Below are positions 655 to 62,886 of a stretch of DNA of 64,000 nucleotides, in pieces. Source of the stretch: Diphasiastrum complanatum (Eukaryota; Streptophyta; Lycopodiopsida; Lycopodiales; Lycopodiaceae). How positions within the stretch are numbered: position 1 is the first letter of the stretch; every line of letters begins with the position of its first letter. The stretch covers positions 43,340,744 through 43,404,743 of the forward strand of contig CM055102.1 in the NCBI GenBank assembly GCA_029204225.1, in the 5' to 3' direction. The notes under the pieces were generated by a model, which saw only the letters and a program-made list of their open reading frames with translations, had not been told where the DNA came from and searched no databases. A program made the translations under genes and the position numbers.

Positions 655-1083
655 TACGCTCTCACATCATATAGTGAGCTCAAGATGTCCCAAACTTCTT
701 TCGAAGTCTTAGCTTCAACTATGTGGCCAATTTGAGTATCTGATATATTGAGGATAATAAGCGCGGAAGCTTTATCATCCTTCAATTTTCATTTTGAGTC
801 TTCTGTGTCATCTTCAGGTTTCACTTCGATACTTGTAACAACATCCCACAACTCGTTGGCGATTAGCAAGGTCTTCATCTTAAATTTCCACAAATGATAA
901 TTGGATCCATTCAGTTTGTCTACAATAAGACCAGCTTTACTTTGAGAATCCATCTGAAACTTAGTCTGTCGATTGTATCAATGACGCTAAGATGTAGTGA
1001 TGCTAACAATAGGAAATCAATTTTCTGATACTGAAAGGATGAAAGGAACTCAAGAATATGATATCAATTTGATATCGCAAAAG
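655..1083 (-). pseudogene. Decayed Copia gag N-terminus with 5' leader, minus strand
   Basis: Reading the minus strand from an ATG at 953-951 gives a typical Copia Gag opening: a short lead, then LNGSNYHLWKFKMKTLL, an acidic stretch, and a helical segment containing TSKEVWDILSSLYD. This is the UBN2-type Gag pattern (N-Y-x-x-W near the start, W-D-x-L later). One TGA interrupts the frame around 795, and readable similarity ends near 655. Upstream, at about 1030-1045, the minus strand reads TATCAGAAAATTG, which resembles a worn primer-binding site, so the old element's 5' LTR should lie to the right. The younger Copia element at 1084 cuts it there. The LTR remainder may continue after 7322, but I could not confirm this. 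Confidence 0.7.
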
Positions 1084-1817
1084 TGTGAAGAATTGAAAAA
1101 GATTATCTATGTTAGATATAGGGGTCTTATGTTTTTTACATCAAGCATCTAGGTGTAGGATGTTGATAGGAATAAATTTGGCATAGATGGCAAATTATGC
1201 ATTTCCACTTGTAATGCCACTATTGAGCCAAAATAGAGTAAGAGGCTAAACACTTGCTAATTAGAGTGTAGACAAGTGTAAAGTTTTTGTTTGAATTCCA
1301 AGAGGTCCAAGAGGATTTAGAGGTGGAACCTTGTAAAGTCCAATAGGAAATTGAGGTGTGCTTGAATATAGTCCAATAGAATTAAGACGTGCATAGATCA
1401 ATGATCCAATAGGATCAAGAGGTGACAAAATATGGTCCAATCATAGTTAAGCATAGCGGTAGCTCGTGGACCTACTAGTATCATTGTACTCCTCATTTTG
1501 AAGCTAATTGTTTTGGTGATTTCATGGATTTTGTGAGTTATTGAATTTCTAGCTTTCTCTCTCTACGCGAGAGCTCATGATGCATTTTCTCTCTCTACCC
1601 GAGGAGAGCAGCTTGTTTTTACTTAGATTATTTTTTGAATACTTCCCACACGTGTGAGTGAGAGTTGGAAGTGATTGAATGCATGTAGTAGTGTGTTTTT
1701 GCCATAGGATTCAAGATTGATCTTGAATCTCAATCTAGTCTTGATCTTGGTGCATCTACACACCTTAGGAGATCACAAGTACATGTAGTGGACAGTCCAC
1801 ACGTGTGAAATTCAACA
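1084..1817 (+). repeat. 5' LTR of the Copia element
   Basis: This 734-bp LTR has TG...CA ends and is directly repeated at 6581-7317. It contains two copies of the palindrome cacacgtgtg (near 1649 and 1797) and two ctctctctac/ccgag segments. It continues straight into the primer-binding site. A reversed relative lies at 16569-17299. Confidence 0.95.
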
Positions 1818-1830
1818 TGGTATCAGAGCC
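1818..1830 (+). other. Primer-binding site, initiator tRNA-Met type
   Basis: TGGTATCAGAGCC directly follows the last base of the 5' LTR. It is complementary to the 3' end of plant initiator tRNA-Met, the usual primer for minus-strand cDNA synthesis in plant Copia elements. Confidence 0.93.
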
Positions 1831-2573
1831 TACCTAAGGTTACCATGCATTTTGATCCATCTAAGTGAAAAAAATTTCATCAATCTTGAGCTAGAAGTTG
1901 TCAAGGCCCATTTTCCTAGCTATCTTGTTCAATCTTGGATCAAAAGAGATCAAAAGGACATTTATTGGGTCTGACCTAGTACTGTACGGAATCAGGTGCT
2001 CAGACACGTGTGAGGAACATCCAATTTCAGTTTGGAAGTTCTCTCTCATGTTTGATCCATTTATCTTGCTTGATAGCTTGTTTTGAAGCTATTTTTGTCT
2101 AGTTTCTGTTGCAATCAGTTCAATTCCATTTGGTTGAGCCAATCAAAAGTTATAAGCTTTTGAAGAGGGTTAGGTAGGGCACCTAGACCTGGGTGGACAC
2201 ATTTGGTTTGGTCAAGAGATTGCTTGGTTGAACCAAAATCACAGTTGTATGCTTGCCAATCTCATCTATATGTGATCTAGGCACTGTTTTGAGATCTTAG
2301 CCATTTTGTTCATGCAATATCATTGTATTTGAGTCAAATTTGGTTTGTTAGTGTATTTCACACGTGCTAAGAGTGTTAGATCCTAACTTGGCCTATACTC
2401 CATCATTTGATGTGAAATAGATCTTGTTTTAGAGAGATTTGTGTAGCTAGTGAGAATCAATTCACAAATTGTTGTAAGATCTTTCATAGGAGGAGATAGT
2501 ACTCAATTATTGGATCCTATTGAAAGTGTGTAACAACATTTATTGTTCATCATTTGAGTTTTCTTCACTTCAA

Positions 2574-5500
2574 ATGTCTTCAATGGGTTCATCCTTGTTG
2601 GAACCAAGCGAAAGATTGACTACTTCAAATTATTCAATTTGGAAAATGAGGATGGAGTCCATCTTGATCCTTCAAGACGTGATGGACATAGTTCTTGGCC
2701 TTGAAGAATAACCACAAGTTCTTCAAGAGGTTCAAAAATACAAAAAGAGAGCTAGGATGGCTCTCCACTACATTAAGATGAATGTCTCTAATGAGATATT
2801 GAGGGAGATAGGTACTTGTTCAATAGCCAAAGAAGCTTGGGATTGTCTCAAGACTATCTATGAGGCTAAGAATACCTCTAGGCTTCTCACTCTTAGGAAT
2901 CAAATCTTTCAAAGTAGCCAAAAGAGTGATGAGAGTGCATCTAGTTATGTTTTGAGAGTAAAAGATATTCATAGAGAGCTTGCTTGCATTGGTGATTCCA
3001 TCAATCAAAATGAGCTAGTTCAAGTCATTCTCAATGGCTTGAGAAGTGAATTTGCTAACCTTGTCCAATCCTATGCCATTAAGGAGGAGCTACCAAGTTT
3101 GGAGGCTCTCCAAAGTGTGCTAATTTCAGAAGAATCAAGACAAGAGTACAAGCTCTTGAGGATGGACAAGCTTTCTCTCACTCATAATGATGGCAAAGCT
3201 CTCTTTGCCAAGGATAAGCACAAAGGGAGGAGCAAGAACCAACATCAACAATCCTCAAGCAAGGACAAAGTCAAATCCAAAGACAAAGATGAGGAGGAAG
3301 ATGATTCCTCTAATGCTTCTTCATCCAAGCTCAAGAAGAAGAAGATCAAGTGCTTTTATTGTGGCAAGAAAGGTCATTATGCCACCAATTGCTTCAAAAA
3401 GAAGAATCAACTCAAGCAAGCCAATATTACCAATGAGAAGGAAGACACTATTGCAAGTGATGGAGAGGGATCTCTTATGGTCTCTAGTTTCTCATCTACT
3501 CCTTTCAAGAAGGACGGCCTATGGTATATTGATAGTGGAGCCTCTTCACATATGTGTAGCTCCAAAGACTCTTTCTCTTCTATTGCACCTTATGATGGAG
3601 TGAAGAAATCAATATACACTGCAAATGATTTTGAATGTCCTATTGAAGGCATAGGGAAGATTCCCTTGAAGTTTGCATCCTCTAAAGTTCTTTCTCTCTC
3701 TAGAGTTCTTTATGTACCTAAGCTTACCAAGAATCTTATTAGTGTTGGACAATTGCTTGATAATGGCCTTGATGTAAAATTCAATGTTGATACTTGCACT
3801 ATCAAGAAGAATGATGAGATACTTGCATTAGGATCTAGATTTGGTGGCATCTATAAACTAGATCCAAATGAGTATGTGAATGCTTGTAATGTTCCTCTTG
3901 TGAACAAGCTCTCTATGGAGGAATTATGGCATAGGAGGTTGGGACATCCCAACTACAAATCCATGCTCTCTATGACCAAAGAAACCAAAGCTATTGGCTT
4001 GCCAAAGTCATTCTCACAAGAAGATCAAGCCTTGTGAGGCTTGTGCTATTGCTAAATCTCACAAAAAGCCATTTACAAGATCTTCTATCAAAAGCAAGCA
4101 TCCTTTGGAGTTAATCCACTCGGATGTGCATTTCTCATCAACTACAAGCAAGGGAGGAGCCACTTGTTTTGTTACTTTCGTTGATGATTACACAAGATTC
4201 ACTTGGATATATCTTCTTGCTTCAAAATCTATGGTGTTTGATCATTTCCTTATTTTCAAAGCTTATGTAGAGAAGCAATTCTCATTCAAGATTAAAGCTC
4301 TTAGAAGTGATGGTGGTGGTGAATATATCTCCAATAAATTTCAAGATTTTTATGAGCTTGAAGGCATTAAAAGAGAGTTTTCTTGTGCCTACTCTCCATC
4401 TCAAAATGGAGTGGCCGAGAGAAAGAATAGATCTCTATGTGAATGTGCAAAATCTATGAGAATTGAGGCATCTTTGCCCAAAGATTTTTGGGGAGAAGCC
4501 ATTAATTGTGCAAATTATCTTTGCAATAGGCTCCCACATATAGCTCTTGGAGGAAAGTCACCATATAAAATCTTATTTTTGAAGAAGCCTAAGGTTGATC
4601 ACCTTAGAGTTTTTGGATGCTTATGCTTTGTCCATATTCCCTTGGAAACAAGGAAGAAGGAAGATCCTAGTGCATGCAAAGGGATCATGGTTGGATACTC
4701 ATCCACCAAGAAGGCCTATAGAGTCTTTATACTCTCTACTTCTCAAGTTATTGAAAGTAGAGATGTTGTCTTTCATGAAGATCAACACTCATCATTTGAA
4801 GAGGCCGAGATCAAGAAATCTATGGATGCATCATCAATTATTGATTTTGAAGACAATCATGATGTGATGGGGTCGAGATTTGAAGAAGACTCTCCTCGGA
4901 TTTTTTCACCAAGAAGATCCATGAGAGATAGATCCGAGCCTAAGAGGCTCTCATATGTTGACAAAGGCAAACAAGTGGATCTTGATTCCACTAATTATGT
5001 TTTTTATGTCTCTCATGAAGAGCCAAAGAATGTACAAGAGGCACTCAGTACCAAGGAGTGGTATGATGCCATGAAGCAAGAGTATGATGCATTGATCACC
5101 AACAATACTTGGGAGCTTGTGGATCCTCCATCCAACAAGCATGTGATTGGTTGCAAGTGTTCTATTTCGGATCAAGTTCAATCATGATGGCACCATCAAC
5201 AAGCATAAAGCAAGATTATGTGCCAAAGGATTTGCTCAAATCCATGGTCTTGATTATGAGGAGACCTTTGCACCCATTGCAAAGATGGTGACAATAAGAA
5301 TTCTTATTTCTCTTGCTTGTTTTTTCAAGTGGAAGGTGTTCCAATTAGATGTATCCAATGCTTTTCTAAATGGTTATCTTGAGGAGGAGATCTATATGGA
5401 ACAACCTCAAGGATTCATCAAGGATGAGTCCAAAGTGTGCTTGCTCTTCAAAAGTCTTTATGGACTCAAGCAAGCACCAAGATCATGGTATTCAAGACTT

Positions 5501-6562
5501 AACTCTTTTCTTATCTCACTAGGATTTACTCTTAGTGACTATGATCCTTCCATGTATCTAAAGTTTGTTGATAGCAATATTGTCATTCTTCTAATTTATG
5601 TTGATGACATTATTCTTTGTGGAAGTTGTATCAAGCTAGTTGATGAAACCAAGCTAGCACTTGGATGTGAGTTTAAAATGCAAGATCTAGGAGAGATACA
5701 TTACATCCTAGGCCTAGAAATTGATTTTTATGAAAATCATGTCTTTATATGCCAATCTAGATATGCTCACTCTATGTTGAAAAAACTCCATATGGAAAAT
5801 TCTAAGAGCATAGATACTCCAATGGAGCAAATTGTAAAAGATCCTAATAAAGGTGATGAAAGATCCTTTGAGGACATCACACTTTTTAGGAGTCTTGTAG
5901 GCTCCTTGATTTGGCTTACCATTACTAGGCCCGGTCTTAGTTTTCGTGTGCACAAATTGAGTCAATTTATGCAAGATCCTAAGATCCATCATTGGAAGAT
6001 GGCCAAGAGGATTCTAAGATATGTATCTTCATCTTGTGATTATGGTCTACTCTATAAAAGTGAAGATCTATCCATTATTGGCTACTCGGATTCGGACTTT
6101 GCAAGTGACAAAATGGATCGAAAGTCTATTAGTGCATACACTATCTTTCTTGGAGGCAATCTAATATCTTGGCTTTCCAAAAAGCAAGATACTATATCTC
6201 TCTCTTCATGTGAGGCCGAGTACAAAGCACTCACTACAACTACAAAAGAAGTGCTTTGGATCAAGAGGTTATTAATGGAACTAAAGTGCATCAAGGAGGA
6301 TGATCTACCAATGATCAAGTGTGATAACATCTCGGCCCAAGCTCTTGCCAATAATCCCATATTTCATGCAAGAAGCAAGCACATAGAAGTGGTACACCAT
6401 TTTGTGAGGGAAAAGCTTATTGGAGGAGAATTCTATTTGGAGCATGTCAACTCGTCCTCTTGTATTGCCGATCTACTCACCAAGCCTTTGAGCAAAAGTG
6501 CTTTCATCAAGCATAGATCTAATCTTGGAGTTATATCAAGATCAATGCCCAAATCTTCATAG
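2574..6562 (+). pseudogene. Copia gag-pol polyprotein, one stop and two frameshifts
   Basis: This encodes the structural and enzymatic proteins of the Copia element. The most plausible start is ATG 2574, followed by the Gag motif SNYSIWKMRME. A TAA at 2709-2711 interrupts Gag, and the frame then runs to 4037. Along it are a basic/acidic linker, a CCHC zinc knuckle (CFYCGKKGHYATNC, from 3351) and the aspartic protease motif DSGA (from 3531). GAG-pre-integrase follows with LWHRRLGHPN, and its CxxC lies just past a frameshift near 4020. The integrase core has its acidic residues in HSDV, VDDY and NGVAERKN. A second frameshift near 5155 precedes RT, with LDVSNAFLNG, SLYGLKQAPRSW and the catalytic YVDD (5597-5608). 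RNase H has GYSDSDFASD and SSCEAEYKAL. All domains survive, so the damage is recent and light. Confidence 0.93.
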
Positions 6563-6572
6563 ATAATCTTTT

Positions 6573-6580
6573 AGGAGGAG
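6573..6580 (+). other. Polypurine tract
   Basis: AGGAGGAG sits immediately before the 3' LTR. This is the expected position for the RNase-H-resistant primer of plus-strand DNA synthesis. Confidence 0.85.
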
Positions 6581-7317
6581 TGTGAAGAATTGAAAAAGAT
6601 TATCTATGTTAGATATAGGGGTCTTATGTTTTTTACATCAAGCATCTAGGTGTAGGATGTTGATAGGAATAAATTTGGCATAGATGGCAAATTATGCATT
6701 TCCACTTGTAATGCCACTATTGAGCCAAAATAGAGTAAGAGGCTAAACACTTGCTAATTAGAGTGTAGACAAGTGTAAAGTTTTTGTTTGATGAATTCCA
6801 AGAGGTCCAATAGGATTTAGAGGTGGAACCTTGTGAGGTCCAATAGGAAATTGAGGTGTGCTTGAATATAGTCCAATAGAATTAAGAGGTGCATAGATCA
6901 ATGATCCAATAGGATCAAGAGGTGACAAAATATGGTCCAATCATAGTTAAGCATAGTGGTAGCTCGTGGACCTACTAGTATCATTGTACTCCTCATTTTG
7001 AAGCTAATTGATTTGGTGATTTCATGGATTTTGTGAGTTATTGAATTTCTAGCTTTCTCTCTCTACCCGAGAGCTCATGATGCATTTTCTCTCTCTACCC
7101 GAGGAGAGCAGCTTGTTTTTACTTAGATTATTTTTTGAATACTTCCCACACGTGTGAGTGAGAGTTGGAAGTGATTGAATGCATGTAGTAGTGTGTTTTT
7201 GCCATAGGATTCAAGATTGATCTTGAATCTCAATCTAGTCTTGATCTTGGTGCATCTACACACCTTGGGAGTTCACAAGTACATGTAGTGGACAGTCCAC
7301 ACGTGTGAAATTCAACA
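6581..7317 (+). repeat. 3' LTR of the Copia element
   Basis: This 737-bp LTR matches the 5' LTR except for nine substitutions and a 3-bp insertion near 6790. It ends TTCAACA and is followed by the duplicated target aaaag. Confidence 0.95.
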
Positions 7318-12304: not shown

Positions 12305-12980
12305 CTTGAATCCGAAAACTTCCATGGTTTTTGTGTGTAAATTTTTCACCCTCCAAATGTCTCTTTATAATCTTGCCATAATTTGTTTGTGAAAATATCC
12401 ATGAAAGTATTTTATGGTCTTCTTTCAAGACTTGTGGAGAAGCAAGTAATGCATGACATGTTCATAAAAAATGGCAATGTATGAAATGTTAATAACGATA
12501 CTTAAAAAGAAAATTGATAAGTAAACTGGAATGCCGCCAACCACCATATGTGATTTTCTGATTGAACACTAAACGTTCGATCATCTGTATCTAAAATTTT
12601 GTTCATCAAAGTGAGATCATTCATTTCAATTTTATTACAATAATGATCTTTCCATTTACTTGACGTTTGTCTAGTTTATAGAATCGAATAATATATTTTA
12701 GAACATTTACTACTATTGCAATTGTTGTAATTGAGCTCACCATATTCTGATTTGTATAATTCAGTTATATGAAGTGGTTGGCCAACTACTTTGAACATTC
12801 CATCATTATACTAATTTCTTGTTAATGTTACCCGATATGGACGAGGAAGATAAGTTTTTTTCACCATCACTTGAGAAAAGGCTTCTTTAACTATTCTAAA
12901 AAAAGTAGAATAAGTATCTCTGCTAATTTCAGAAACATCACATACACCTAGTATCACATTTGCATCCAAGTTTGAATCTT
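12305..12980 (-). pseudogene. Dispersed repeat, copy A of an unidentified minus-strand gene
   Basis: This segment matches 38140-38860 over about 650 bp in the same orientation, with many substitutions and small indels. Both copies contain, for example, attgaacactaaacgttcg and atatgaagtggttggccaac. In the other copy the adjoining sequence has an intact 237-codon minus-strand frame, and here that part is missing. The shared part looks like a 5' coding section broken by stops. Two diverged copies 26 kb apart with different flanks point to a mobile element, probably a DNA transposon, rather than a host gene. Confidence 0.7.
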
Positions 12981-14719
12981 ATTTAAAACACTCTCTGCAA
13001 TTTCATTTTTCATTTTTTCAAACCAAGCATTTTTCATCATTGCCTTTGCTGACTTTCTTGGTAAAACATGACTTACATATGATTCGATGCATTTTAACAT
13101 TTTTTATCGGCATGCACACTTTTAAATTTATGTATGATCATCCCTAATATGCTTGAAGCAAGTGACATTTAGTGATTGAATCCATACATAAGTTATAATG
13201 TTTCTAAGTGTGAAGCAAAATAAAGTATGCAGTCGGTTATCTCAAATCGAAAAACATTAAGTAGCAAAGAACTAAAAACATATATAGTGTTTAAAGAGAC
13301 CAAAACAAATGCAAGGATATTTTTTAGACTATCACAAATCAGACTACTAAACAATACTTGATAGTTCATGTTTATCTTAAACCTCTACAACTTGTGAGTC
13401 TATCGACTAAAATAGGCTAATAACGAAATGATAATAAATAACTATTCAAAGTTCATATTAACTTTTACTAGTATGCAATTATGATAAATAGAACATCAAG
13501 AGCCGTTCACAAGGTACAATTGGCCTTCAGCAGCCATATCATCCACATAAGGACATCTTTTCTTCTTTCTGTATGGGTAATTGGTGACATAGTTCCACCA
13601 CCTCCTCATCCAATCCAGCAATAGACTCTGCATAAACCGGTAGAGACCTATAAGCAACATGCAGTTAAACCAAAGACAATTCATGTATCCAACATAATAT
13701 TAAATCAAAAGGGCTAGGCTTTCACCATGCATGACAACGACAAAAATGTAATGAGAATTGTAAGTATGTAGCATGACTTACCAGTCCACCGGAATCTGAA
13801 AGTGAATTGATTCCTCTCCATCCTGGACCCGGTATATGCAGTGAGGAAGATTACATTCCATCAAATCACAAATAAAACAGCTCCCTTTGTATATTTAGAA
13901 TTTAGACTCCACATTTTTGGGACTTTCATGTTTCCTATCGTGTATGTTCTAACATGTGTGTTGCTTTTATGATATGTGTTCCATTTGAAATGCCTCTTAT
14001 GGGCTCCATTTAAAATGGAGTTACTTAGCTAAGAATTTGATTTCTTTTTCATATATTTGAAGTTGTTGCAAAAAGCCAATGCCATAAACCACAAGGCAAG
14101 ATACTCTGGTAGACCATCTTTTTCCATTGACTCTAACGAGGCGCTGATTAGGGAATGTTTGTCTCCGATGATTCGGGATGACTCATGTGAGTGGATACCA
14201 TGGCCTTTTTCCTTGCTTCAACTCCAATTTCCTATACAATTCTATCTTCTGATGCTCATCTACAGTCAAGTTTTCACTAAAGGTCCTCTCTCCACACTCA
14301 GATATTGTCTTGGCATTGTAGAGGTAGTCTTTTAAATTTGTCTTGACTATAGCATTCTCATTCAACCCAAAGAAATTCCATACATCAACCTTTATTTTTC
14401 TAGAATCACATGGAATGAAATAGAACATTCAAATAAAGTAGAATAAGTTACACAACCTATGTAGCATACAAACTTACAAATTCAAACACTGTAGTGTAGC
14501 TACCATATATATAAATATATCATTCCATACCATGCCCTAAACCTACCATTCCATAATATACCTAAACACCCTTCCAAACCTAGCATACACATATTCCAGA
14601 AATTTTATAAACATAGCATACCTAAACATTCCATAACATACAACAATATATCATACCATAATGACATGCTGTAATAACACTTTAAAGAGACTAATAGACC
14701 CCATCTGTTGTACGATGGG
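12981..14719. other. Intergenic sequence, no gene recognised
   Basis: Short open frames occur on the minus strand at 13496-13684 and 14183-14428. The second has a plausible amino-acid composition but no recognisable motif. Part of this interval may belong to the element represented by copy A to the left. Confidence 0.35.
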
Positions 14720-16545
<1,826 letters not shown>

Positions 16546-16568
16546 CTAAAAATATGTGAGCTAATCTT

Positions 16569-17299
16569 TGTTGAATTTCACACGTGTGGATTGTCCACTA
16601 CATGTACTTGTGATCTCCTAAGGTGTGTAGATGCACCAAGATCAAGACTAGATTGAGATTAAGATCAATCTTGAATCCTATGGCAAAAACACACTACTAC
16701 ATGCATTCAATCACTTCCAACTCTCACTCACACGTGTGGGAAGTGTTTCAAAAGTATTCTAAGTAAAAACAAGCTGCTCTCCTCGGATAGAGAGAGAAAA
16801 ACCATCATGAGCTCTCGGGTAGAGAGAGAAGGCTAGAAATTCAATGACACTCAAAATCCACTCAATCTCAAAATCAATTAGATCCAAAAGGAGGAGTACA
16901 GTGATACTAATATATTCATGAGCTACCATTATGCTTAACTATGATTGGATCACACTTTGCCACCTCTTAATCCTATTGGACCATTGATCCATGCACCTCT
17001 GAATTCTATTGGACTATATTCAAGCACACCTCAATTTTCTATTGGACCTCACAAGGTTCCACCTCTAAATCCTATTGGACCTCTTAAGCTTCATCAAACA
17101 AAAGCATGACACTTGTCTACACTCTAATTGGCACAAGTTTGGCTCTATTTTGGCTCAATATTGGCATTACAAGTGGAAATGGATAATTTGCCATCTATGC
17201 CAAATTTGACCCTATCAACATCCTACACCTAAATGCTTGACTATGAATTCTATGAGACCCCTATATCAAACATTTTGATTTACTTTACAATTCTCCACA
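16569..17299 (-). repeat. Isolated, reversed LTR of the 1084-7317 Copia family
   Basis: The reverse complement of this 731-bp segment aligns end to end with the LTRs at 1084 and 6581. It begins TGTGGAGAATTG and ends ACACGTGTGAAATTCAACA, with divergence clearly higher than between the two young LTRs. No primer-binding site lies at its left end and no convincing polypurine tract at its right. The flanking 5-mers (atctt and cgtgg) do not match, so a simple solo LTR from recombination within one insertion is not supported. It may derive from recombination between two elements or from a truncated copy. Confidence 0.9.
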
Positions 17300-21410: not shown

Positions 21411-23061
<1,651 letters not shown>

Positions 23062-23800: not shown

Positions 23801-24624
23801 GTTGACCTCTGTTGAAATGGAAAAATAATCCATCTTGACTTTAGGCTTGTTACAAATGTTGTACCATGCAAGTATGTTGTTCGTAAATGCAAAATGCATA
23901 TCGCACTTGTGCGCGAGTAGGTATACTTGCAAGCAAACAAACAGCAATGAGCGCGCACAAAAGCGATATGTCGCAAATTTTGAGAGCGCAAAAGGTAAAA
24001 AATTATTTGATTTCCATGCCATTTATACTAAATTTTTGCATGTGTGGTCAACGGACTTATGACACATGTCTACTTTCAATTCGACAACAGGTGCAGGCAC
24101 GTGTGAGATGACACCTGCACACGTGTGAAATAACACCTAGACACGTGTCGCGTGTTCATTTGATTGCTCATAAACACGTGTCGCTCTCGCATTCGATCGT
24201 ACAAATCCCACATGTGTGGTGTGATAGGGTGACATGTGTCGCTCTTGCATTTGTCCATACAACTCTCACACGTGTGACAGGACGTTCTTTCGCACGTGCG
24301 AATCTCGATATAAAATCACTTTCGATGAATTTTTTTCACTTTTTTTTTCGCTCCGCATATTGCATTTGTGCGTGCCCTTCACAATCAAAATTTCTCCTAC
24401 TACCTTCCATGCGCACATGTTCGATACGTCTGCCTACGTGTCACCCCATATCGCACTTGTGCGTCTTTCCTCAAATCTAATCGTTCTCTCTGATATTCGG
24501 CTCGCATAGGTCCAATATACTATATATTATGTCCGTACATAGCGGTCCTCTGCGAGTTCTTTATCATCCCTTCCTTCTCATCCTAACCTCCATGCACAAG
24601 TCTGCTATCACATAGTTCACGCCC
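23801..24624 (+). promoter_or_regulatory. Upstream region of the H3-Ulp gene, CACGTG cluster
   Basis: Six CACGTG palindromes (G-box core, the usual bHLH/bZIP target in plants) lie within 24098-24298: at 24098, 24120, 24142, 24175, 24269 and 24293. Two CATGTG variants sit between them. One copy in 4096 positions is expected by chance. A 17-mer, catatcgcacttgtgcg, occurs at 23897 and again at 24447. TATA-like stretches are present near 24307 (gatataaaat) and 24520 (actatatatt), and the second lies about 100 bp before the ATG. Whether this is a functional promoter is inference from position and motif density. Confidence 0.5.
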
Positions 24625-26363
24625 ATGGATAGGAGAAAGCAGACAAGGAGAGATTTCTTCTCTCCTGGCTCATCCTCATCTCCTGCGGTTGCCATCACAC
24701 CACCTCCTAGACCTAGAACGCGCAACCACAGCAGGTGGCTCTCTGAGATACGCAAGTATCAGAGGTCAACAGCTCTGTTGATCCCAAGAGCTCCATTCTA
24801 CCGTGTTGTCTGGAACATAACAAGAAATGATCTCGGACAGCACATTAGATTCACACCGAGTGCTCTTCAGTGCCTTCAGAAGGCTGCTGAAGACTATATT
24901 AGCCTTTTTTTTTATGATTCTTTTTTGCTTGCCATCCATACCAAGAGGGTTACCATAATGCCCAAGGATTTTCAGCTTCTGATGAGAATGAGGGATAGGT
25001 ACTATAGGTTACATGTATCTCAGCCTCCTACTCCTAGACCAACTCTTGTAGATAGGACTCATCTTCCTACGAAGCGTCCTAGGAAGCAGACAACCCCCAA
25101 GCGTGCTCCTAAGAAAGTGAAGCCTATCCCAAAATCCATTGTAGATAATGTTGTTGTTGATAATGTTGTAAATATAGCTACCTTTGTTTTGGATACTCCT
25201 ATAGTTGTTGTAGATACTACACATCCACCTCCTCCTCCTCCTCCTCCTCCTCCCAATTTCTATACATATATAGATTCGGATGATTATCTTAAATTTGAGA
25301 AAGACATATCAGATGCTATAGATACAATTGGTACTCCTTTTTGTTTTAGACTAGAAGAACTTGATTTTAGTATTAATTTTAGAGTTCTAGATTGCCTGGA
25401 TCTCAAAGATAGATGGGCTTCTATCAGTGATCCTGTGATAGAGTCCGGGATGACACTCTTGCAATTTGACATTGCAAGAGATTCATCAAACGAGTTGCTG
25501 GTGCTGAGTAACTTTCTGCTCCAGGCCTTCAAGGAGAATAATGACACATTGTCACAGTGTCTGACAAGTGGATTCACACCAGCAACAAAGTATCTGGTCA
25601 TTCCTTATCATACTAAGTAAGATATATTAAGTGCTTCTTCATGTTTTATGCATTAACATTGACATTTTCAATTTAAATAGTTCTCAGAATTGCCGCTAAA
25701 GTACTTTTAATCTTATTTTGCAGTGACCACTGGATTTTAAACCTGATCACTATTAAGAGATCTGTAAATAATATTATAAAATGTTCTTGTGTCAAGATGA
25801 ATTCGGCGAGAAATACGCATAAGGATGTAGATATATTCATTCCATATCTAAGTAAATATATTCCTACAGACGTTCCCCATTCCGTGGACTGGCAGATTGT
25901 CAGCTTGGAGGTAAACTCTGTCTTTCTTAATAGCATTTTGAAATCAGTATTCTAATGAAATATTTTCAATCTAATTCATTCTATTTCATAATTGATTTCT
26001 TGTGTGCTGAATTATTTTGCAGTCACCCCAGCAAAATGATTCATTCAGTTGTGGGTGGTACACATTGTACAATGCCAAGCTATTTTTTGAGTGGTTCATC
26101 CTTCAACAAGATGTTGATATTTCTAAGGTAATAAATTTTGTTTATTCTTATTTTGGAATCATGATTACTTTTCTATTCTGGTGATGTTATTGGCCATTAC
26201 TAATACGTGAATGTTCTATTTGCAGTTTACACTTCTTGAGTATACATCAAGCCAGGTGTACAGATTTAGACAAGAAATTATCTTGAGTATATTGGCTAGG
26301 GCAAGGCTTCAGCCTTCCGTTATTGATGATGGTGCAAAGGATGATGTAGTTGTACTAAATTAA
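24625..26363 (+). CDS. Histone H3/CENH3-like fold fused to Ulp1 (C48) protease domain
   Basis: There are four exons, 24625-25616, 25724-25910, 26023-26127 and 26226-26363, with GT-AG introns and compatible phases, giving 473 codons. Residues 38-126 form a histone H3 fold: EIRKYQRST at alpha-N, LLIPRAPF, KAAEDY in alpha-2, and AIHTKRVTIMPKDFQL at L2/alpha-3. LLIP, AAEDY, KDF and a loop 1 one residue longer than in canonical H3 resemble plant CENH3. The short tail starts MDRRKQT. A Lys/Arg/Pro-rich linker (134-172) and ten prolines (201-210) lead to a C-terminal Ulp1/C48 domain. That domain has His333-Trp334, Gln397 in SPQQND and Cys403 in SCGWY, and the Gln-Cys spacing of 6 matches yeast Ulp1. 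The catalytic Asp after the His is not evident (KCS where Y-D-S is usual). Known families suggest nucleosome incorporation and SUMO-isopeptidase activity, and their combination here is inference. I recall no described protein with this architecture. Confidence 0.85.
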
Positions 26364-26558
26364 GATCAGAAAAAATATAAATAGCATAGAACAAAAGTAT
26401 ATGTATAGACTTCATAGAAAAATATACATTGATATATCAAATGTTGCTCCAGTTTATGAATTTGTTAGCACAAAATACATGTATAGATGCCCAACTTGGG
26501 CTTTCATTTATTGAATGAAAGGGTGTATACACAGATTTTTACTAAAGTTTATTTGAAA

Positions 26559-27166
26559 CTATTGTTCTCCCACAATGGTGATTGTTGTAGGTAGATCTTT
26601 GCAGCACATTATCAGCTCCTGTCTTTTTCGCATCTGTGACATGGCAAATATTAGTGAATGTTTGTAAATGATGACATTTTCTATTATTTTGTTCTATTTT
26701 GAAATGGCAATAAACATAAAGTACTTACAAGTCTTCCATTGATGATAAATCTGAAATATGTTGGTAGATTGGTTTGTAATAGCATGAGCTCTGTTCTGAT
26801 AAAATCAAGCTTCCAGTGCTCTTCCACCTCAACCATAGTCAAATATTTCTCATTGTAGATAATGCTTATCTCCATTCAGTTTGTGTGACCATTTAGTTCA
26901 AAGTCTTGATCCAGTGGTAGCCATGTACTTTCAATTTTCTTGTGTCGCTGGCAGCTAAATGTGAGACTGAGCATTTGCTTTTCGATATGATAACGAAAGA
27001 TCATTGAGGACTTTTTAATCCTGCATTCTATGTCATTATTTGTTTTACTATCCCAGCCTTGATCCATGAGATCTGACAAAGTCTCATCTGATAAATCCTT
27101 GCAAACAAATAAAGTTGGTGTCCTACGAACACTAGCACTCGAGAAAAAATCAACAAATGTATGCAA
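26559..27166 (-). pseudogene. Unrecognised two-exon gene convergent with the H3-Ulp gene
   Basis: On the minus strand an open frame runs from ATG 27166 to a good donor (CTT|GTAAGT) ending exon A at 26729. Exon B is 26633-26559, entered from a CAG acceptor in the same phase and ending at TAG. Together they give about 170 residues, with one in-frame TGA at 26876-26878 (possibly a former CGA). The sequence includes TPTLFVCKDLSDETL, FRFIINGRL and a Cys pair in LIMCCKDL. FRFIINGRL faintly recalls a ubiquitin-like strand, but I would not claim it. More exons may exist upstream of 27166. The 3' ends of this gene and the H3-Ulp gene are only 195 bp apart, so they may form one transposable or co-inherited unit. 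Function unknown. Confidence 0.45.
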
Positions 27167-27389
27167 TGAGATAAACCAACATAGTTAGAAAATTTCATTA
27201 GTTAGTTAGTATAGTTAGAAAATTTCATTATACTAACTAGCATAGTAAAGTAAATTTAACTTGAGATATTGACGTCGGACAGATTAGTACGTGTCGGGCA
27301 GGAAGAAGAAACCAATGGGATACGTCCATGCTGCCCGGACACAAATTTCAAAGTTTTCTATATTGCATTTTTTTTTTTTAGTTAATTTG
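27167..27389. other. Possible upstream region of the minus-strand gene
   Basis: Contains a short direct duplication of agttagaaaatttcatta (about 27183 and 27214) and a GC-richer patch (27270-27345). No coding sequence seen. Confidence 0.3.
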
Positions 27390-27512
27390 AACTATGTTAC
27401 ATAGATTTCAAATCTATGCATTTTGATTGGGCCTGGTGACGGTCGAAACTAAAGAAAAAAAATAAAAGTATCTTTACAAAGGGTCTTTTTGATATTGAGA
27501 ACTCCTCTAATG
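27390..27512. repeat. Partial MITE copy (right end only)
   Basis: About 120 bp matching the right end of the MITE at 28621-28985. Shared pieces include catagatttcaaat, a purine-rich stretch, tctttacaaagggtcttttt and the terminus gaactcctctaatg. The left terminal repeat was not found upstream, so the copy is truncated. Confidence 0.75.
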
Positions 27513-28254: not shown

Positions 28255-29743
28255 TCAATCAGCTTTGTGTTGTCTGATGAGCGAATCGATCTTCTCGTAG
28301 GACGCCTTTAGATCCTCTTGGCATCTCCTTTCTGAGTTAACAAACTCCATGGTAATCTTTTGATGATACTTTTCCAACTCATACACTTCAGCCACTAGAT
28401 TTTTGGCTTTCTCTGTCATGGTTCGAAACCACTGGAGTTGGTTGTCTGGTTCATCTTCAATATGTGCCCCAGGGTCGCCTTCAGTAGCTGCTCGTGCTTT
28501 CTCTGATGTGTCAGACTGGGTTGCATCATCATCAGAGGTGGATGCACTCTGTTACTTCTGAGATGTGGAAGCAGATGCTAGCTTTGAAGAATCAGCAGCA
28601 GCAGTAGCTCCATCTATATCCATTAGAGGAGTTTTGCGCTCCAAAAAGACCCTTTAAGAATTCGTGCAAGATGTAGTTTATATTATTAAGATATTATAAA
28701 ACTAATACTTTTGACTTGCCATAACTTTTTAATAGTAGCTCAGAAGTATGTCATGTAGCATATTATTGGAAAGTCCTTGTTCAGCGCTTTCCAATGCACC
28801 AAACTTCGTTAAATTCGGACTTACCACTAAAAAGTTATGCCATCTTCAGTGTGGACTCAAAAAGTTATGTTACGTAGATTTCAAATTTGAGTGTTTTGAT
28901 TGGTCCATGTGTAAGAAAAAATTGAGAAAAAATATAAAAAAAATCTTTACAAAGGGTCTTTTTTGGATTTAGAACTCCTCTAATGCATTGCCACAGTTGG
29001 AACTGTATCTGGTTGGGATGGTGCAGCATCAATCTCCATAGTAGTGGTAGTTGCCACTTCGACTGTTGGTGTAGCATCTGGTGTAACCGGAATATGGACA
29101 AGCAGGATGCTGGAAAGATCAATTGGCTTGGGAGCCAACATCCTTCCCGTCAGCATTGTTTTCTCTTGCTTGATCAAAATGTCAAAATGGACTCACAATC
29201 GAGAAACATGTGCTCCAACGCCAGAAAACTTTTGATGTTTAATCCATCGCAAAAAAGCCTTGTAGGTAATAACGCCGAAGCAAACTGGATTACCCGCTAA
29301 CGCGTCCAATATATAGCCAAAATTTTGGACCGAAATTTTCGCATCCACATCCATCAAAAATATTGCTTGATTCGCGTATTTATAGAACAACTTAAATGTT
29401 GTATTCTTGATCATTGAAATTTTGTACCCCTTCGTGGGTATGAAACAATTGCTCAAAAAATGTGTCGTTTCATCTAGTCTTTGTTCGCTGAAACCATCTT
29501 CTCATCCAAAGGTAACCCGAAGGCTGTGCAGAACAGGTCTTCAGTAATTGTGAAAAAAATTTCTCGCACATGAACTTTGAAGTCCACCTCAGAGATTGAG
29601 TGGATGGAGTTCACAAATTCAGTACTTACTTCGGATAAGATTATAGAAGGATCCACTTCCAAATAAGACTAGATGGATGCCAGGCAGATTCCTACGTGTG
29701 CTTTCCAAATGATAGTAGAACTAGAACTTGATCCGGAAGCCAT
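28255..29743 (-). pseudogene. Broken TE-type gene with helical N-part and coiled-coil C-part
   Basis: On the minus strand, ATG 29743 opens a Ser-rich start, followed (after a TAG) by a helical domain with SISEVDFKVHVREIFFTITE and FCTAFGLPLDE. A frameshift leads to FKLFYKYANQAIFLMDVDAK and a segment ending VGAHVSRL. A Thr/Val/Pro-rich linker follows, with TPDATPTVEVATTTTM. The MITE at 28621-28985 cuts the gene, after which it resumes with an Ala/Ser-rich stretch. It ends in a likely coiled coil (KAKNLVAEVYELEKYHQK) at TGA 28255. The pattern (helical head, variable linker, coiled-coil tail) resembles poorly characterised plant transposon ORF1/gag-like proteins. I do not recognise the family. 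At least two stops and a frameshift make it a pseudogene. Confidence 0.55.
28621..28985. mobile_element. MITE with ~38-bp terminal inverted repeats
   Basis: The left end reads cattagaggagttttgcgct followed by ccaaaaagaccctt. The right end, read in reverse complement, is cattagaggagttctaaatc followed by caaaaaagaccctt. The 365-bp interior is AT-rich and non-coding. It interrupts the minus-strand pseudogene, so it is younger than that gene. A partial copy lies at 27390-27512. I see no clear target-site duplication, so the superfamily is undetermined. Confidence 0.8.
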
Positions 29744-37375: not shown

Positions 37376-37539
37376 AGATGTCGAAGACTAATTTAGGTCC
37401 TATCCTTATATGTCAATGATGAGGGTGTGTGTGTTCCAATTTGTATAAAGATGAACTCTATTACACACACCCACAAAAAGTATTAAATGTCATTTGGTCA
37501 GGAGATAGCTCAATGATTTTGCAAATTCCTCATATCTTC

Positions 37540-38860
37540 TTATGATAGGTTTTCTTTCCTGATAACTCCTATGAGTTTGTCTAAGTTGGTCCACACTTGT
37601 CCCTTTTCCACTCGATTACTTACTTTCAGTGTTTGTGTGGCTTGAACAATTTCTCTCCAAATTTTGTATCTGACACTTGATTCTTTGCATGTGTGATTGG
37701 ATAAGAATCTTCTTGCTTTAGCACCCTCAATTGATGGCTTATTAGGAACGTTTCTTTTTTTCCCGGAGAGTCTGTCACTTTTTTCAATCATGACATTCTC
37801 TTTATGTAGTCCTGCATTTGACAGAACTATTTCCAACCTCCTAATTGTTAATTTAGCCACCGACTCCGGTTTATGATTCCATGCTAGTAGAATATACAGA
37901 TAAATAAGTTTTTCAATAATACGAACCTCAGCATGCAATGTGCATATGTGAACATATTTTAATGGAATTGGCAGAACACTTTTCATATTTGGATCTTCAG
38001 CTTCTCGTGTTGGACTAGTGTTTGTTGATCGTCCCAAATTCATATTGTAGCATTTCTTCATGCAATAAAGACATGGATGCTTTGATGTTGCCCCATGAGA
38101 GACATTATACATACATTTTAATCTTTCAAATCCCCTACAAGGTGCCATTGAATTTGAAAACTTCCATGGTTTTTTACTGTGAAAATGTCTCTTTATAATC
38201 TCGCCATAATTTGTTCTTGAAATCCATGAAAGTATTTTATGGTCCTCTTTCAAGACCTATAGAGAAACACGTAATGCATGACATGTCAATAAAAACTGGC
38301 AAGGTATGAATTGTTAATAAAGATATTCTAAATGAAAATTGAAATGTATACCTAGAATGCCGCCAACACCATATGTGATTTTTCGATTGAACACTAAACG
38401 TTCGATCATTTGTATCTAAAATTTTGTTCATCAAAGTGATACTCACTCGTTCCAACTTCTGACCCTTGATGATTTCAGATTCATCCAATTTTATTACAAT
38501 AATGATCTTTCCATTTACTTGATGTTCGTCTAGTTTATAGAATCGAATAATGTACTTTAGAACATTTTTAATATCAAGGAAAATATTATTGCAATCGTTG
38601 TAATTGAGATCACCTTATTCTGATTTGTATAATTCAGTTATATGAAGTGGTTGGCCAACTACTTTGAACATTCCGTCATTATAAAAATTTCTAGCTAATC
38701 TTACCTGATATGGACGGAAGATAAATTTTCTTCACCATCACTTGGAAAATATATTCTTTAACTATTTTAAAAAAAGTAGAATAAGCATTTATGCTAATTC
38801 TAGATACATCACATGCACCTTGTATCACATTCGCATCCAAGTATGATTAAACCTTAGCGA
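37540..38860 (-). pseudogene. Unidentified multi-copy gene with CxxC and LHAEVRI motifs (copy B)
   Basis: An intact 237-codon frame (38253-37540) on the minus strand contains SKHPCLYCMKKC, PIPLKYVHICTLHAEVRI, AWNHKPESVAKLTIRRLE and a Lys-rich tail. Upstream sequence (38488-38350) looks like another exon ending at a possible donor near 38350. That region matches copy A at 12305-12980. A Cys pair followed some 60 residues later by a conserved I-C-T-L-H-x3-R-I helix is reminiscent of insertion domains in RNase-H-fold transposases, but I cannot assign a superfamily. Two dispersed copies make a mobile element likely. It might also be a domesticated gene, because this frame is intact. Confidence 0.5.
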
Positions 38861-38869
38861 ACAAAGCAA

Positions 38870-39247
38870 TCTGACAAGCATTGCAGCATTTGAACTTAAA
38901 AAACTTTAGCAAGTTTGCCAATGATCAACCTTAAAAGATGTAGCAAGTTTTCCAACGATCTTCCTTAACAAAAATAGTGTTTATTACAATATTTCCATCA
39001 ATCTTCATGTCACAATTTTAACAATAACTTTAGCTTTTGAATTCTGAATTTTTAAAATCTAAGGCAGCAAACTTCTTAGTCTCCTCACGTGGCCATCATA
39101 AAATTGCCAGTATTATAATTGAAGATTGAAATTAAGAGCTAGCTAGGGACACCACACCCTCTCCTCAAAGAAGATCGAATCAATCTACATATGATCATTG
39201 ATCTCATTCATTGAGTACCTCCTTGTTCTCTCGAACCTTGAACCAAA
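38870..39247. other. Probable leader of a minus-strand Copia-type element
   Basis: Lies between the dispersed repeat and a primer-binding-site-like sequence. No coding motif is readable. Confidence 0.3.
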
Positions 39248-55902: not shown

Positions 55903-56290
55903 CTGCAAGAAAAGCTCCAAAGCGTAGCACTTTCAACACAAACAAAACTGTGATATTACAGAAATCATTGTGCTTGCTTTGTAGTCTTTATACCTATGTC
56001 AAATCCTTTGTTGTGTTTGTTGAGTTACAGAGCAACCAAACAAAAGGTCAACATTTTGCGTGTTTTGAGGTGCTTGTGTGGTGTGCATCCTCGATTCCAT
56101 AGCTTGAGGAAAACAATTGCAACAAAACTGCTGCTCACAATTTTAAACTCCAAGGTGGTCTTTTTGAAGTTGGATATTCTCTTTATAAGGTTGGATTTAT
56201 TCCTATTTCCAGCAGCGATTAAATATCCAGTAATAATTTGCAACACCCATAAAAATGTAAACTCCTCGACTTGTTCCTGGTGGAGGTAAC
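55903..56290. other. Intergenic sequence left of the nested gypsy pair
   Basis: No motif seen. The five bases gtaac (56286-56290) directly precede the outer LTR and would be the outer element's target duplication if it recurs beyond the window. Confidence 0.35.
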
Positions 56291-56434
56291 TGTTACGAGC
56301 ACGTGACCAGTGCCGAATCCTAGAGAACACAGAAGGTCAGATACCAGTCAGGGTCGTGTCCAGCGCGTACACGACCAACAAGGCAAGACAGTGTGAGTGG
56401 TGCGCCCCAGCACGGTCCATAGCCATGGCGGGCC
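56291..56434 (+). repeat. Outer gypsy element: first part of its 5' LTR
   Basis: 144 bp starting tgttacgagc. It is homologous, in reverse orientation, to one end of the inner element's LTRs. It is interrupted at gggcc (56430-56434), the site where the inner element inserted. Confidence 0.9.
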
Positions 56435-56792
56435 TGTAATAGATCCTAACACCACAGTAGGGCAAACACTAACTGATCCACCCCACCTTGCCTACTCCCT
56501 GATATAGAGTAAGCCCCTCCTAGCCCAGTGTGAGGACTGGTAGCATGCTACTGCCAAGTGTCGGCCACGTGGCACTGACGTGGTCGACTGCACGTCGGGA
56601 CCCAACTGGGGGCCCTATCCTGCTGACAGGGTCCCTAGGCTGTGTTAGGCCCGCCATGGCTATGGACCGTGCTGGGGCACACTAGTCACACTGTCTTGCC
56701 CTGTTGGTCATGTACGCTGGACACGACCCTGACTGTGGTATCTGACCTATCTGTGTTCTCTAGGGTTCGGCACTGGTTACGAGCTCGTAACA
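56435..56792 (-). repeat. 3' LTR of the inner gypsy element
   Basis: 358 bp, TG...CA in both readings. It carries 4 bp (tgca near 56590) that the other LTR lacks. Confidence 0.95.
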
Positions 56793-56803
56793 CTCCCTCC
56801 CCC

Positions 56804-61591: not shown

Positions 61592-62287
61592 CTTCGAAAC
61601 TGAAAGAGAGCTACCTTAACTTCTGAAGGAAAAAAGTCTAAAAGACTAATTTACAACTGTACAAGGGAAAGGAAAGATGACTTAGCTGTTTCTGAGGACT
61701 GTACTTCCAAAGAAAGAATGAAGAGGAACCCTTTCAGCTCTTTTCCCCAAAATTTCAGACCTGTTGTTCCGAAAAATGCCAGTTTGAAGCTTCAAAACGG
61801 TGCTAAATTTCCCGGTTTTTTGATGATAGTAGCTCGCTGGTTTGATAGGAATCCTCTTGCTCCAAATCTCTGACGTTGGGGCCCAAAAACTTGTTGAAAA
61901 ACCAGATTTTCAGAAGTACTGGCAGCGCTGGCCCTGCTCCTCCTTTTTGGCTTCAAACTCGCTGAGAACCAGTAACTTTTTCCCTGGAAATCGGATGTAG
62001 GTCTCTGACTGTACAGCGATGGAGGTGCTGGCTTCTTCCTACTCTAATTTCGCTGGGAAAACTATAGAGAATCCTCTCAACTCAGTGGGAAACAGCTGTT
62101 TTTTCAGCGAGTTACCTACACTTGGAATCTGACTCCTTGCTACTGTGATTTCTCAGTGGAAATCAGAAGTTTGAAGGCTGCTCCTACAGCGATCCTCCTC
62201 CTCTATTCCTCTCTGAGAATCTGAGAAACACTTCCTATCTTCTGATAGCTTTCTCTACTACTGTCCTGAACTCCCTAGGATGGAGAT
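61592..62287 (-). other. 5' leader of the inner gypsy element
   Basis: Untranslated leader between the primer-binding site and the gag ATG. I see no coding motif. It is readable as diverged homology to 62887-63768 of the outer element, in opposite orientation. Confidence 0.6.
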
Positions 62288-62300
62288 GGCTCTGATACCA
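62288..62300 (-). other. Primer-binding site of the inner gypsy element
   Basis: TGGTATCAGAGCC on the minus strand, one base from the LTR. It is complementary to the 3' end of initiator tRNA-Met. Confidence 0.93.
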
Positions 62301-62301
62301 G

Positions 62302-62655
62302 TGTAATAGATCCTAACACCACAGTAGGGCAAACACTAACTGATCCACCCCACCTTGCCTACTCCCTGATATAGAGTAAGCCCCTCCTAGCCCAGTGTGA
62401 GGACTGGTAGCATGCTACTGCCAAGTGTCGGCCACGTGGCACTGACGTGGCCGACCGTCGGGACCCAACTGGGGGCCCTATCCTGCTGACAGGGTCCCTA
62501 GGCTGTGTTAGGCCCGCCATGGCTATGGACCGTGCTGGGGCACACTACTCACACTGTCTTGCCCTGTTGGTCATGTACGCTGGACACGACCCTGACTGTG
62601 GTATCTGACCTATCTGTGTTCTCTAGGGTTCGGCACTGGTTACGAGCTCGTAACA
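62302..62655 (-). repeat. 5' LTR of the inner gypsy element
   Basis: 354 bp, nearly identical to 56435-56792. It is followed on the plus strand by the duplicated target gggcc. Confidence 0.95.
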
Positions 62656-62872
62656 GGGCCTAACACAGTCTAGGGACCCTGTCAGCAGGACATGGCCCCA
62701 GTTGGGGCTTGACGTGCAGTCGGCCACGTCAGTGCCACGTGGCCGACACTTGGCAGATGCATGCTACCAATCCTCACACTGGGCTAGGAGGGGCTTACTC
62801 TATATCAGGGAGTAGGCAAGGTTGGGTGGATCGGTTAGTGTTTGCCCTGCTGTGGTGTTGGGATCTATTACA
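62656..62872 (+). repeat. Outer gypsy element: second part of its 5' LTR
   Basis: Begins with the duplicated gggcc and continues the LTR cut at 56434. It ends ggatctattaca at 62872. The two parts without the extra gggcc add up to 356 bp, the same length as the inner LTRs. Confidence 0.92.
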
Positions 62873-62873
62873 C

Positions 62874-62886
62874 TGGTATCAGAGCC
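62874..62886 (+). other. Primer-binding site of the outer gypsy element
   Basis: TGGTATCAGAGCC, one base after the outer LTR, mirroring the inner element. Confidence 0.93.

What the first reader, a model, noticed from the sequence alone, without database searches (positions are those of the whole stretch)
24625..26363. Histone H3 (CENH3-like) fold fused to a Ulp1-type SUMO protease in one spliced gene
Seen: four exons with GT-AG borders and consistent phases give 473 codons without a stop. An H3 fold (EIRKYQRST, KAAEDY, AIHTKRVTIMPKDFQL) is followed by a basic and proline-rich linker and a C48 domain (HW, SPQQND, SCGWY). Known: H3/CENH3 are normally stand-alone nucleosome subunits, and Ulp1/C48 enzymes remove SUMO and are often captured by plant DNA transposons. 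Inference: the protein could carry SUMO-protease or SUMO-binding activity into chromatin, perhaps centromeric. I recall no described protein with this architecture, so it is my best candidate for a new system. An intact frame amid heavily decayed neighbours suggests recent arrival or selection.
Basis: partly seen in the sequence, partly recalled or inferred. Interest (0 to 1): 0.95.

Follow-up and report, generated by a model that had tools for sequence, protein, structure and literature searches.

The report
Transposon carrying a histone–protease fusion gene
The odd gene is real, but it is one truncated copy of a jumping-gene family with at least 200 such genes in this plant genome; natural selection has preserved its histone half, which hints that the transposon may use its own histone against the plant's silencing machinery.

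Summary
In detail: four GT-AG exons (24625-26363) give 473 codons with an H3 histone fold (Pfam E=1e-26) and a C48/Ulp1 domain (E=1.7e-10). The reading changes. The gene belongs to a high-copy DNA transposon of the same 1.74-Gb genome: 201 distinct listed places, a lower bound. Complete elements are about 9.3-9.5 kb with 35-bp inverted repeats (2,378 ends genome-wide, control 0), a transposase-like gene of a family without a Pfam match, two unknown minus-strand genes and the H3-C48 gene. The window copy is a left-truncated, internally deleted remnant (23898-27512). Recent copies decay nearly neutrally: 4 of 30 are open. Between three older lineages the H3 domain is under purifying selection (dN/dS 0.12-0.17). 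The tail keeps the K4 equivalent and lacks K9, K14-K27 and K36 in the lineages read. C-to-T decay is as strong at CHG as at CG, as expected under H3K9me2-linked methylation. The triad Asp is Asn in 30 of 30 copies. CENH3 kinship is not supported. Best guess: a transposon-encoded, silencing-resistant H3 variant with a tethered SUMO protease or SUMO binder, analogous to VANC/KIU anti-silencing factors; inferred, not shown. Protein and paper searches (capped) found no such fusion.

The parts
23898..27512 (+). Remnant of the H3-C48 transposon (left part with left TIR and transposase-like gene missing)
   Evidence: Homology to other copies starts at 23898 only because this copy is cut there: many others run on upstream. 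Right end 27512/27513 shared by the 4 copies fetched downstream
24625..25616 (+). Exon 1: H3 tail, H3 fold, basic linker, start of C48
25724..25910 (+). Exon 2: C48 with catalytic His333 and Asn357 at the triad Asp position
26023..26127 (+). Exon 3: C48 with Gln397 and Cys403
26226..26363 (+). Exon 4: C-terminus and stop
24625..24726 (+). H3-like tail, residues 1-34: keeps the K4 equivalent (K5), D at the K9 position, no other Lys
24727..25002 (+). H3 histone fold, residues 35-126
   Evidence: dN/dS 0.12-0.17 between lineages
25003..25254 (+). Basic and proline-rich linker, residues 127-210
   Evidence: dN/dS 0.27-0.54 between lineages
25579..26279 (+). Peptidase C48 domain (residues 319-446, across introns)
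23897..24463 (+). Cluster of CATATCGCACTTGTGCG-like and CACGTGTG motifs upstream of the start codon
26687..27199 (-). Second gene of the element (gene B), product unknown, partial
   Evidence: tblastn from L042 gene B, 91%; no Pfam match above cut-off
27196..27206 (.). Junction of an internal deletion of about 0.9 kb relative to 4 other copies, next to a 20-bp direct repeat
27478..27512 (+). Right terminal inverted repeat (35 bp)
   Evidence: identical to the left TIR of the C10 element
28621..28985 (.). Small element with related terminal inverted repeats (MITE-like)
37525..38915 (-). Remnant of a related transposase-like gene
   Evidence: tblastn 41-54% to the C10 gene
12306..13017 (-). Second remnant of a related transposase-like gene

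Best explanation
Layer 1 (shown; about 0.95): the H3-C48 gene is an accessory gene of a terminal-inverted-repeat DNA transposon of about 9.3 kb, next to a gene that looks like a transposase of a family without a Pfam match, in a plant genome; the family has amplified widely and its H3 fold has been held by purifying selection across lineages. Layer 2 (inferred; about 0.35): the protein works in chromatin as a transposon-made H3 variant. Its H3 fold is deposited with H4 by host chaperones; its tail can take K4 but not K9 or K27 methylation, so it breaks the H3K9me2-CHG methylation loop on element DNA; the tethered C48 domain removes or binds SUMO on silencing factors. The net effect would be escape from silencing while the transposase acts.
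For: Family and element: full-length DNA copies 93-95% identical over 1,739 bp; left TIR of the C10 copy identical over 35 bp to the window's right TIR, element 9,338 bp, its own two ends differing at 2 of 35; C12 copy 9,298 bp; two more TIR pairs at 9,451 and 9,371 bp each enclosing a transposase hit; 1,154+1,224 TIR matches, reversed control 0. Linkage: 139 listed transposase hits against 201 distinct fusion places (all rows) give 22 pairs within 8 kb, 21 of 22 same strand with the fusion downstream, 20 of them at 3.4-3.95 kb, 1 of 22 inverted. Selection: H3 dN/dS 0.12-0.17 in the five pairs between three lineages (window/L034, L066, L078); transversion-only 0-fold/4-fold ratio 0.16, window vs L066; exon 2 of C48 0.22 (95% 0.08-0.73). 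Tail: K5 in 30 of 30 copies, no other Lys in residues 1-40 in 29 of 30, same in L066 and L078. Silencing: C-to-T at CHG 9.8%, CG 9.6%, CHH 1.9% per site and copy. Precedent: Ulp1-bearing VANC (KIU) anti-silencing genes of VANDAL elements (passages of PMC13317346) and VANC targets that often form tandem repeats (abstract of PMC5735166); this element has a motif cluster before the H3-C48 start, 6 matches in L042 vs 0.2 expected from 60 first-order random sequences.
Against: No expression, protein or chromatin data. Consistent target-site duplication not found: TCTG (4 bp) in C10, TCA (3 bp) in one C1 element, none in 4 of 6. The triad Asp is Asn (30 of 30), so protease activity is unsure. Residues 211-330 are not always constrained: L066 vs L078 dN/dS 0.72 (0.29-1.88). 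Only three lineages carry the selection test. The tail is 10 residues shorter than in H3, so the loss of K9/K27 is read from an alignment with a gap. Host methylation was not measured; it is read from the decay spectrum. The CACGTGTG part of the motif cluster also occurs elsewhere in the window (27 matches on both strands, 5 of them at 24098-24276).
Confidence: 0.55

Rival explanations
1. Transposition helper: the H3 fold only anchors the protease to nucleosomes or DNA at insertion or excision sites, and the C48 domain de-conjugates SUMO from the transposase or repair factors; silencing is not the target.
For: Ulp1 and OTU domains sit directly on Ginger transposases and have been suggested to act in transposition or repair (passages of PMC2836005). 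H3 fold and C48 exon 2 both conserved.
Against: The gene is separate from the transposase-like gene. The tail pattern (K4 kept, K9/K27 gone, stable across the lineages read) has no role under this view; but tail dN/dS (0.24-0.45) has wide intervals, three of five reaching above 1.
Confidence: 0.3
2. Inactive SUMO or ubiquitin-like reader: with Asn for Asp the C48 domain binds but does not cleave, acting as a decoy in chromatin.
For: Asn357 in 30 of 30 copies and in L066.
Against: His333 (30/30), Gln397 (30/30) and Cys403 (27/30) are kept; papain-type enzymes use Asn as third residue (recalled).
Confidence: 0.2
3. Host centromeric protein: a CENH3-type gene with a fused SUMO protease.
For: Loop 1 is one residue longer than in H3 (alignment); AEDY and KDF resemble plant CENH3 (recalled); weak CENP-T_C hit below cut-off.
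Against: High-copy, TIR-flanked, linked to a transposase-like gene. Best Pfam and PDB matches are histone H3; no CENH3 clade in the tree.
Confidence: 0.03
4. Passenger: a captured gene fusion without function that rides with the element.
For: Most recent copies are broken (26 of 30) and singleton changes are neutral (N/S 1.04 of expectation).
Against: dN/dS 0.12-0.17 in H3 between lineages; 24 of 121 exon-1 matches listed for L066 (itself included) are free of stops.
Confidence: 0.05

Closest known systems
KIU / VANC-Ulp1 genes of VANDAL (non-TIR MULE) transposons, Arabidopsis and eudicots
   Same: Plant transposon with an accessory gene that carries an Ulp1 domain, apart from the transposase gene; implicated in anti-silencing; motif clusters in non-coding DNA (PMC13317346 passages, PMC5735166 abstract)
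   Different: No histone part is mentioned for KIU ('histone' 0 times in the main text of PMC13317346); VANDALs lack TIRs; our transposase has no MULE Pfam match
Ginger1 DNA transposons
   Same: TIR transposon with Ulp1 (PF02902) on board (PMC2836005 passages)
   Different: Ulp1 is the C-terminus of a Gypsy-integrase-like transposase; no histone ('histone' 0 times)
CACTA elements with ULP1 (grapevine, rice)
   Same: Plant transposon with ULP1 region (PMC2528002 passages)
   Different: Tnp2 transposase (passage) and CACTA ends (recalled); ours has neither
Canonical plant H3 / CENH3
   Same: H3 fold, stretches such as EIRKYQ and KRVTIMPKD
   Different: Fused, tail 10 residues shorter, K9 to D, K56 to R, one residue more in loop 1 than H3

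Membership tests
Histone H3 | H3 histone fold recognised by profile above cut-off | tested here: met
   PF00125 94 bits, cut-off 26.4; best PDB matches H3
Histone H3 | Canonical tail with K4, K9, K14, K27, K36 | tested here: not met
   Only the K4 equivalent is kept
Histone H3 | Assembly with H4 into nucleosomes | not testable with these tools
CENH3 | Groups with CENH3 in a tree | tested here: inconclusive
   Separate branch, 0 of 7 inner branches starred; CENH3/CENP-A rows typed from recall
CENH3 | Centromere localisation | not testable with these tools
   no experiment
Peptidase C48 (Ulp1/SENP) | Profile match above cut-off | tested here: met
   41.5 bits, cut-off 20.7
Peptidase C48 (Ulp1/SENP) | His, Gln and Cys of the active site | tested here: met
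   H333 30/30, Q397 30/30, C403 27/30 copies
Peptidase C48 (Ulp1/SENP) | Triad Asp | tested here: not met
   Asn357 in 30/30; the register against the Ulp1 Asp is my reading of a hairpin of different length, phmmer places it otherwise
VANDAL / KIU (MULE) | MULE transposase | tested here: not met
   No Pfam transposase at E<=1 in 8 transposase relatives nor at E<=10 in 7 ORFs of the element
VANDAL / KIU (MULE) | Non-TIR ends | tested here: not met
   35-bp TIRs
CACTA (En/Spm) | CACTA ends and Tnp2 transposase | tested here: not met
   Ends are CATTAG; no Tnp2 match
DNA transposon with TIRs | TIRs, many dispersed copies, linked transposase-like gene | tested here: met
DNA transposon with TIRs | Target-site duplication | tested here: inconclusive
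   2 of 6 elements (4 bp and 3 bp), 4 of 6 none
DDE transposase | Catalytic D, D, E/D | tested here: inconclusive
   Two invariant Asp (KLDE, GDLKTLK), the second followed by a nearly invariant CxxC, in 22 aligned relatives; third residue not assigned; fold not testable; no PDB match

The most novel reading that the evidence does not exclude
A transposon makes its own 'unsilenceable' histone: an H3 variant that keeps the activating K4 site, has lost the repressive K9 and K27 sites, and carries a SUMO protease into chromatin, so that nucleosomes on element DNA cannot be locked into H3K9me2/CHG-methylated heterochromatin.
Probability: 0.3. Interest if true: 0.95.

Novelty: new variant of a known kind. 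Interest (0 to 1): 0.85.

Why it matters
Transposons are known to carry Ulp1 domains and anti-silencing factors; my paper searches (capped listings) showed none that carries a core histone, let alone one fused to a SUMO protease. If the inferred mechanism holds, it is a new weapon in the transposon-host arms race and a natural separation-of-function H3 (K4 without K9/K27) that could be used to test how much silencing depends on histone tail lysines. In this genome the transposon-borne H3 folds (201 listed fusion places) far outnumber the 13 rows that score like canonical histone genes (163.7-165 bits; those rows were not read).

Tried and rejected
CENH3 origin: tree unresolved, rejected as a claim. 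TIR/TSD search inside the window alone found one weak chance-like match because the left end is missing. The boundary at 23898 shared by most copies was first read as the element end; one search showed it is the break point of the window copy. Shared-versus-singleton N/S test (shared 0.54 of neutral, singleton 1.04, shared linker 2.91; Fisher p=0.007 whole, 0.019 H3, 0.30 C48): kept only as support, since searches show that many shared changes are recurrent C-to-T hot spots. Stop at codon 97 (TAG in 12 of 30; the window has TAT, 11 have GAG) sits at the end of a poly-T run and is not taken as one founder. Viral origin: viral-contig scan gave 5 pattern hits, none a relative. Database absence: one search scored 5,001 candidates, probably a cap, and its 13 hits carry no C48 domain in the precomputed Pfam column; one search had 914 candidates, none at E<=1e-3; such collections under-represent spliced transposon genes, so absence is weak. 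Transposase against PDB: only chance-level hits. First linkage count (13 pairs, 12 of 13 same strand) used 110 of the listed fusion places; six rows had been left out, and one search replaces it with all rows. One search paired 150 histone rows with 139 transposase rows (10 pairs, 10 of 10 same strand and downstream); its second block used 21 hand-picked rows, one pasted in error, and is not used.

Full report
WHAT IS IN THE WINDOW. Pfam finds Histone (E=1e-26) and Peptidase_C48 (E=1.7e-10) in the one protein, and the best solved relatives are H3 and, weakly, Ulp1-type proteases. The gene sits among decayed retrotransposon pieces.

IT IS A TRANSPOSON GENE. The window lies in a 1.74-Gb genome held as G000. 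A protein search of that genome gave 192 matches from 90 scored candidates of 15,161 in the first look; a DNA search gave full-length copies 93-95% identical over 1,739 bp; a search with exon 1 of a diverged copy gave 121 matches. Together the listed rows are 201 distinct places. These are lower bounds; the first-look numbers are not counts of copies. In many other copies the homology continues upstream of window 23898, so the window copy is cut there, and it lacks about 0.9 kb near 27195/27207. The right end is window 27512 (27513 in one) in the four copies that I fetched downstream. The copy on C10 has a left terminal repeat CATTAGAGGAGTTCTCAATATCAAAAAGACCCTTT at L065:899, identical to the window's right repeat; that element spans 9,338 bp and its own right repeat has 2 mismatches of 35. 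A C12 copy spans 9,298 bp; for two other copies no left repeat lay in the 600 bases fetched. Genome-wide the repeat occurs 1,154+1,224 times with up to 3 mismatches, the reversed control 0 times; two pairs in that listing enclose 9,451 and 9,371 bp and a transposase hit each. Some of these ends may belong to short derivatives such as the one at window 28621-28985. Target-site duplications are inconsistent: TCTG in C10, TCA in one C1 element, none in 4 of 6. This remains unexplained.

OTHER GENES. Left of the H3-C48 gene in the C10 element lies a gene in one reading frame (L065 about 1304-3634, with introns and one stop) whose product matches a protein family without Pfam domains above cut-off: 46 proteins at E<=10, full-length relatives of 783 and 801 aa. 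Twenty-two aligned relatives share invariant or nearly invariant motifs KLDE, W-H-x-x-x-D-L-K-x-L-K, CxxC and HxCTLH; I read this as a DDE-type transposase, an inference. Two minus-strand genes (A, L065 4123-4641; B, L042 3561-4354, window 26687-27199) match nothing above cut-off. Linkage of transposase and fusion: 139 listed transposase hits against the 201 fusion places give 22 pairs within 8 kb, 21 of 22 same strand with the fusion downstream (20 at 3.4-3.95 kb), 1 of 22 inverted. The other listed transposase hits have no listed fusion nearby; both lists are capped, so this says little. Against 150 listed histone matches there are 10 pairs, 10 of 10 same strand and downstream.

DECAY AND SELECTION. 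Of 30 aligned copies (window and L032-L060, six near-identical pairs included) 4 have neither stop nor frameshift: window, L034, L038, L039; L038 has lost Cys403. Changes from the majority are mostly C-to-T or G-to-A, 742 of 1,174, at 9.8% of CHG, 9.6% of CG and 1.9% of CHH sites per copy (25 copies after dropping 5 near-duplicates): the mark of plant CG/CHG methylation, hence of silencing. Within this young clade dN/dS is not below 1 (window vs L034 0.86, 0.42-2.83). Between lineages it is: window-L066 0.30, window-L078 0.22, L066-L078 0.36, L066-L034 0.28, L078-L034 0.20 for exon 1; 0.14, 0.17, 0.12, 0.13, 0.16 for the H3 fold; 0.54, 0.31, 0.54, 0.50, 0.27 for the linker; 0.29, 0.18, 0.72, 0.29, 0.16 for residues 211-330. 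Transversions alone give much the same for H3, window vs L066 (0-fold/4-fold 0.16). C48 exon 2, window vs L066: 0.22 (0.08-0.73); L066 itself has lost exon 3 with part of exon 4 and has a stop in exon 2. Of 121 exon-1 matches listed for L066, 24 (itself included) show no stop (counted by eye).

ANATOMY OF THE PROTEIN. Against H3 the start MDRRKQTRRD aligns with MARTKQTARK: K4 is kept, K9 is D; the tail is 10 residues shorter, the stretch that holds K14 to K36 in H3 has no lysine, and K56 is R (H3 numbering recalled). K5 is present in 30 of 30 copies and no other lysine occurs in residues 1-40 in 29 of 30; L066 and L078 agree. In C48 the active-site His333 and Gln397 are in 30 of 30 and Cys403 in 27 of 30; the expected Asp is Asn357 in 30 of 30. 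Hydrophobic patches beside Asp in the linker resemble SUMO-interacting motifs; this is a look by eye only. The fusion lies outside the CENH3 pair in a ten-row tree of low support.

MECHANISM. Shown: transposon location, copy number, linkage with the transposase-like gene, selection on the H3 fold, tail pattern, methylation-type decay. Inferred: that the H3 part enters nucleosomes, that the missing K9/K27 matter, and that C48 acts on SUMO. I prefer an anti-silencing role because the host response visible in the decay is the H3K9me2/CHG kind (established plant biology, recalled), because the tail lacks just the sites that response needs, and because Ulp1-carrying VANC genes of VANDAL elements are described as anti-silencing (passages of PMC13317346; abstract of PMC5735166). 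The motif cluster upstream of the start codon (CGCACTTGTGCG with up to 2 mismatches: 6 in L042 vs 0.2 expected, 0 in the two other pieces of the C10 element) is a candidate target or promoter array. A role in transposition itself, as proposed for Ulp1/OTU in Ginger (passages of PMC2836005), is the main rival.

NOVELTY. Ten paper searches were run; nine bore on this, on the host plant. None of the titles and abstract openings listed describes a histone-Ulp1 fusion or a transposon-encoded histone; listings were capped (in one search, 15 of 995 papers). I read passages of PMC2836005, PMC2528002 and PMC13317346 and the outline with abstract of PMC5735166, nothing else. The library holds open-licence papers only. 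The host plant was not identified: 23 large contigs and an unusual transposon set made me think of a clubmoss such as Diphasiastrum (chromosome number from recall, untested).

Noticed in passing
window 28621-28985: Small element with inverted ends related to the H3-C48 transposon's TIR (arms of 38 nt, 79% complementary); possible MITE mobilised by the same transposase. Flanks show no target-site duplication.
   Followed up: partly
window 12306-13017 and 37525-38915, minus strand: Two broken relatives of the transposase-like gene: 35-49% and 41-54% identical to the C10 gene in pieces.
   Followed up: partly
window 1082-7317: Copia-type retrotransposon with 98.4% identical LTR-like blocks (1082-1817 and 6579-7317), and a further copy of that block at 16567-17273 (about 89%).
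   Followed up: no
window 56290-63994: Gypsy-type retrotransposon genes on the minus strand with several duplicated LTR-like blocks.
   Followed up: no
genome G000: 13 histone matches of 163.7-165 bits, then a gap to 109.5 bits and 137 weaker rows. Only 35 of the 137 lie at a listed fusion place or near a listed transposase; the other 102, some in open frames of over 300 aa, may be further transposon histone lineages.
   Followed up: partly
protein P0012 (267 aa, JGI contig of 23.5 kb): Histone H3-like protein with long extensions that groups weakly with the fusion in the small tree (81/87, long branch); source organism unknown.
   Followed up: no
proteins P0014-P0017: Short-contig proteins 64-95% identical to about half of the transposase query; P0014 reads into the intron, so it looks genomic. 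They suggest near relatives of the element in other sequenced samples.
   Followed up: no
window 15034-15244 and 22912-23059: Long uninterrupted dinucleotide tracts, (CT)105 and (GA)74.
   Followed up: no
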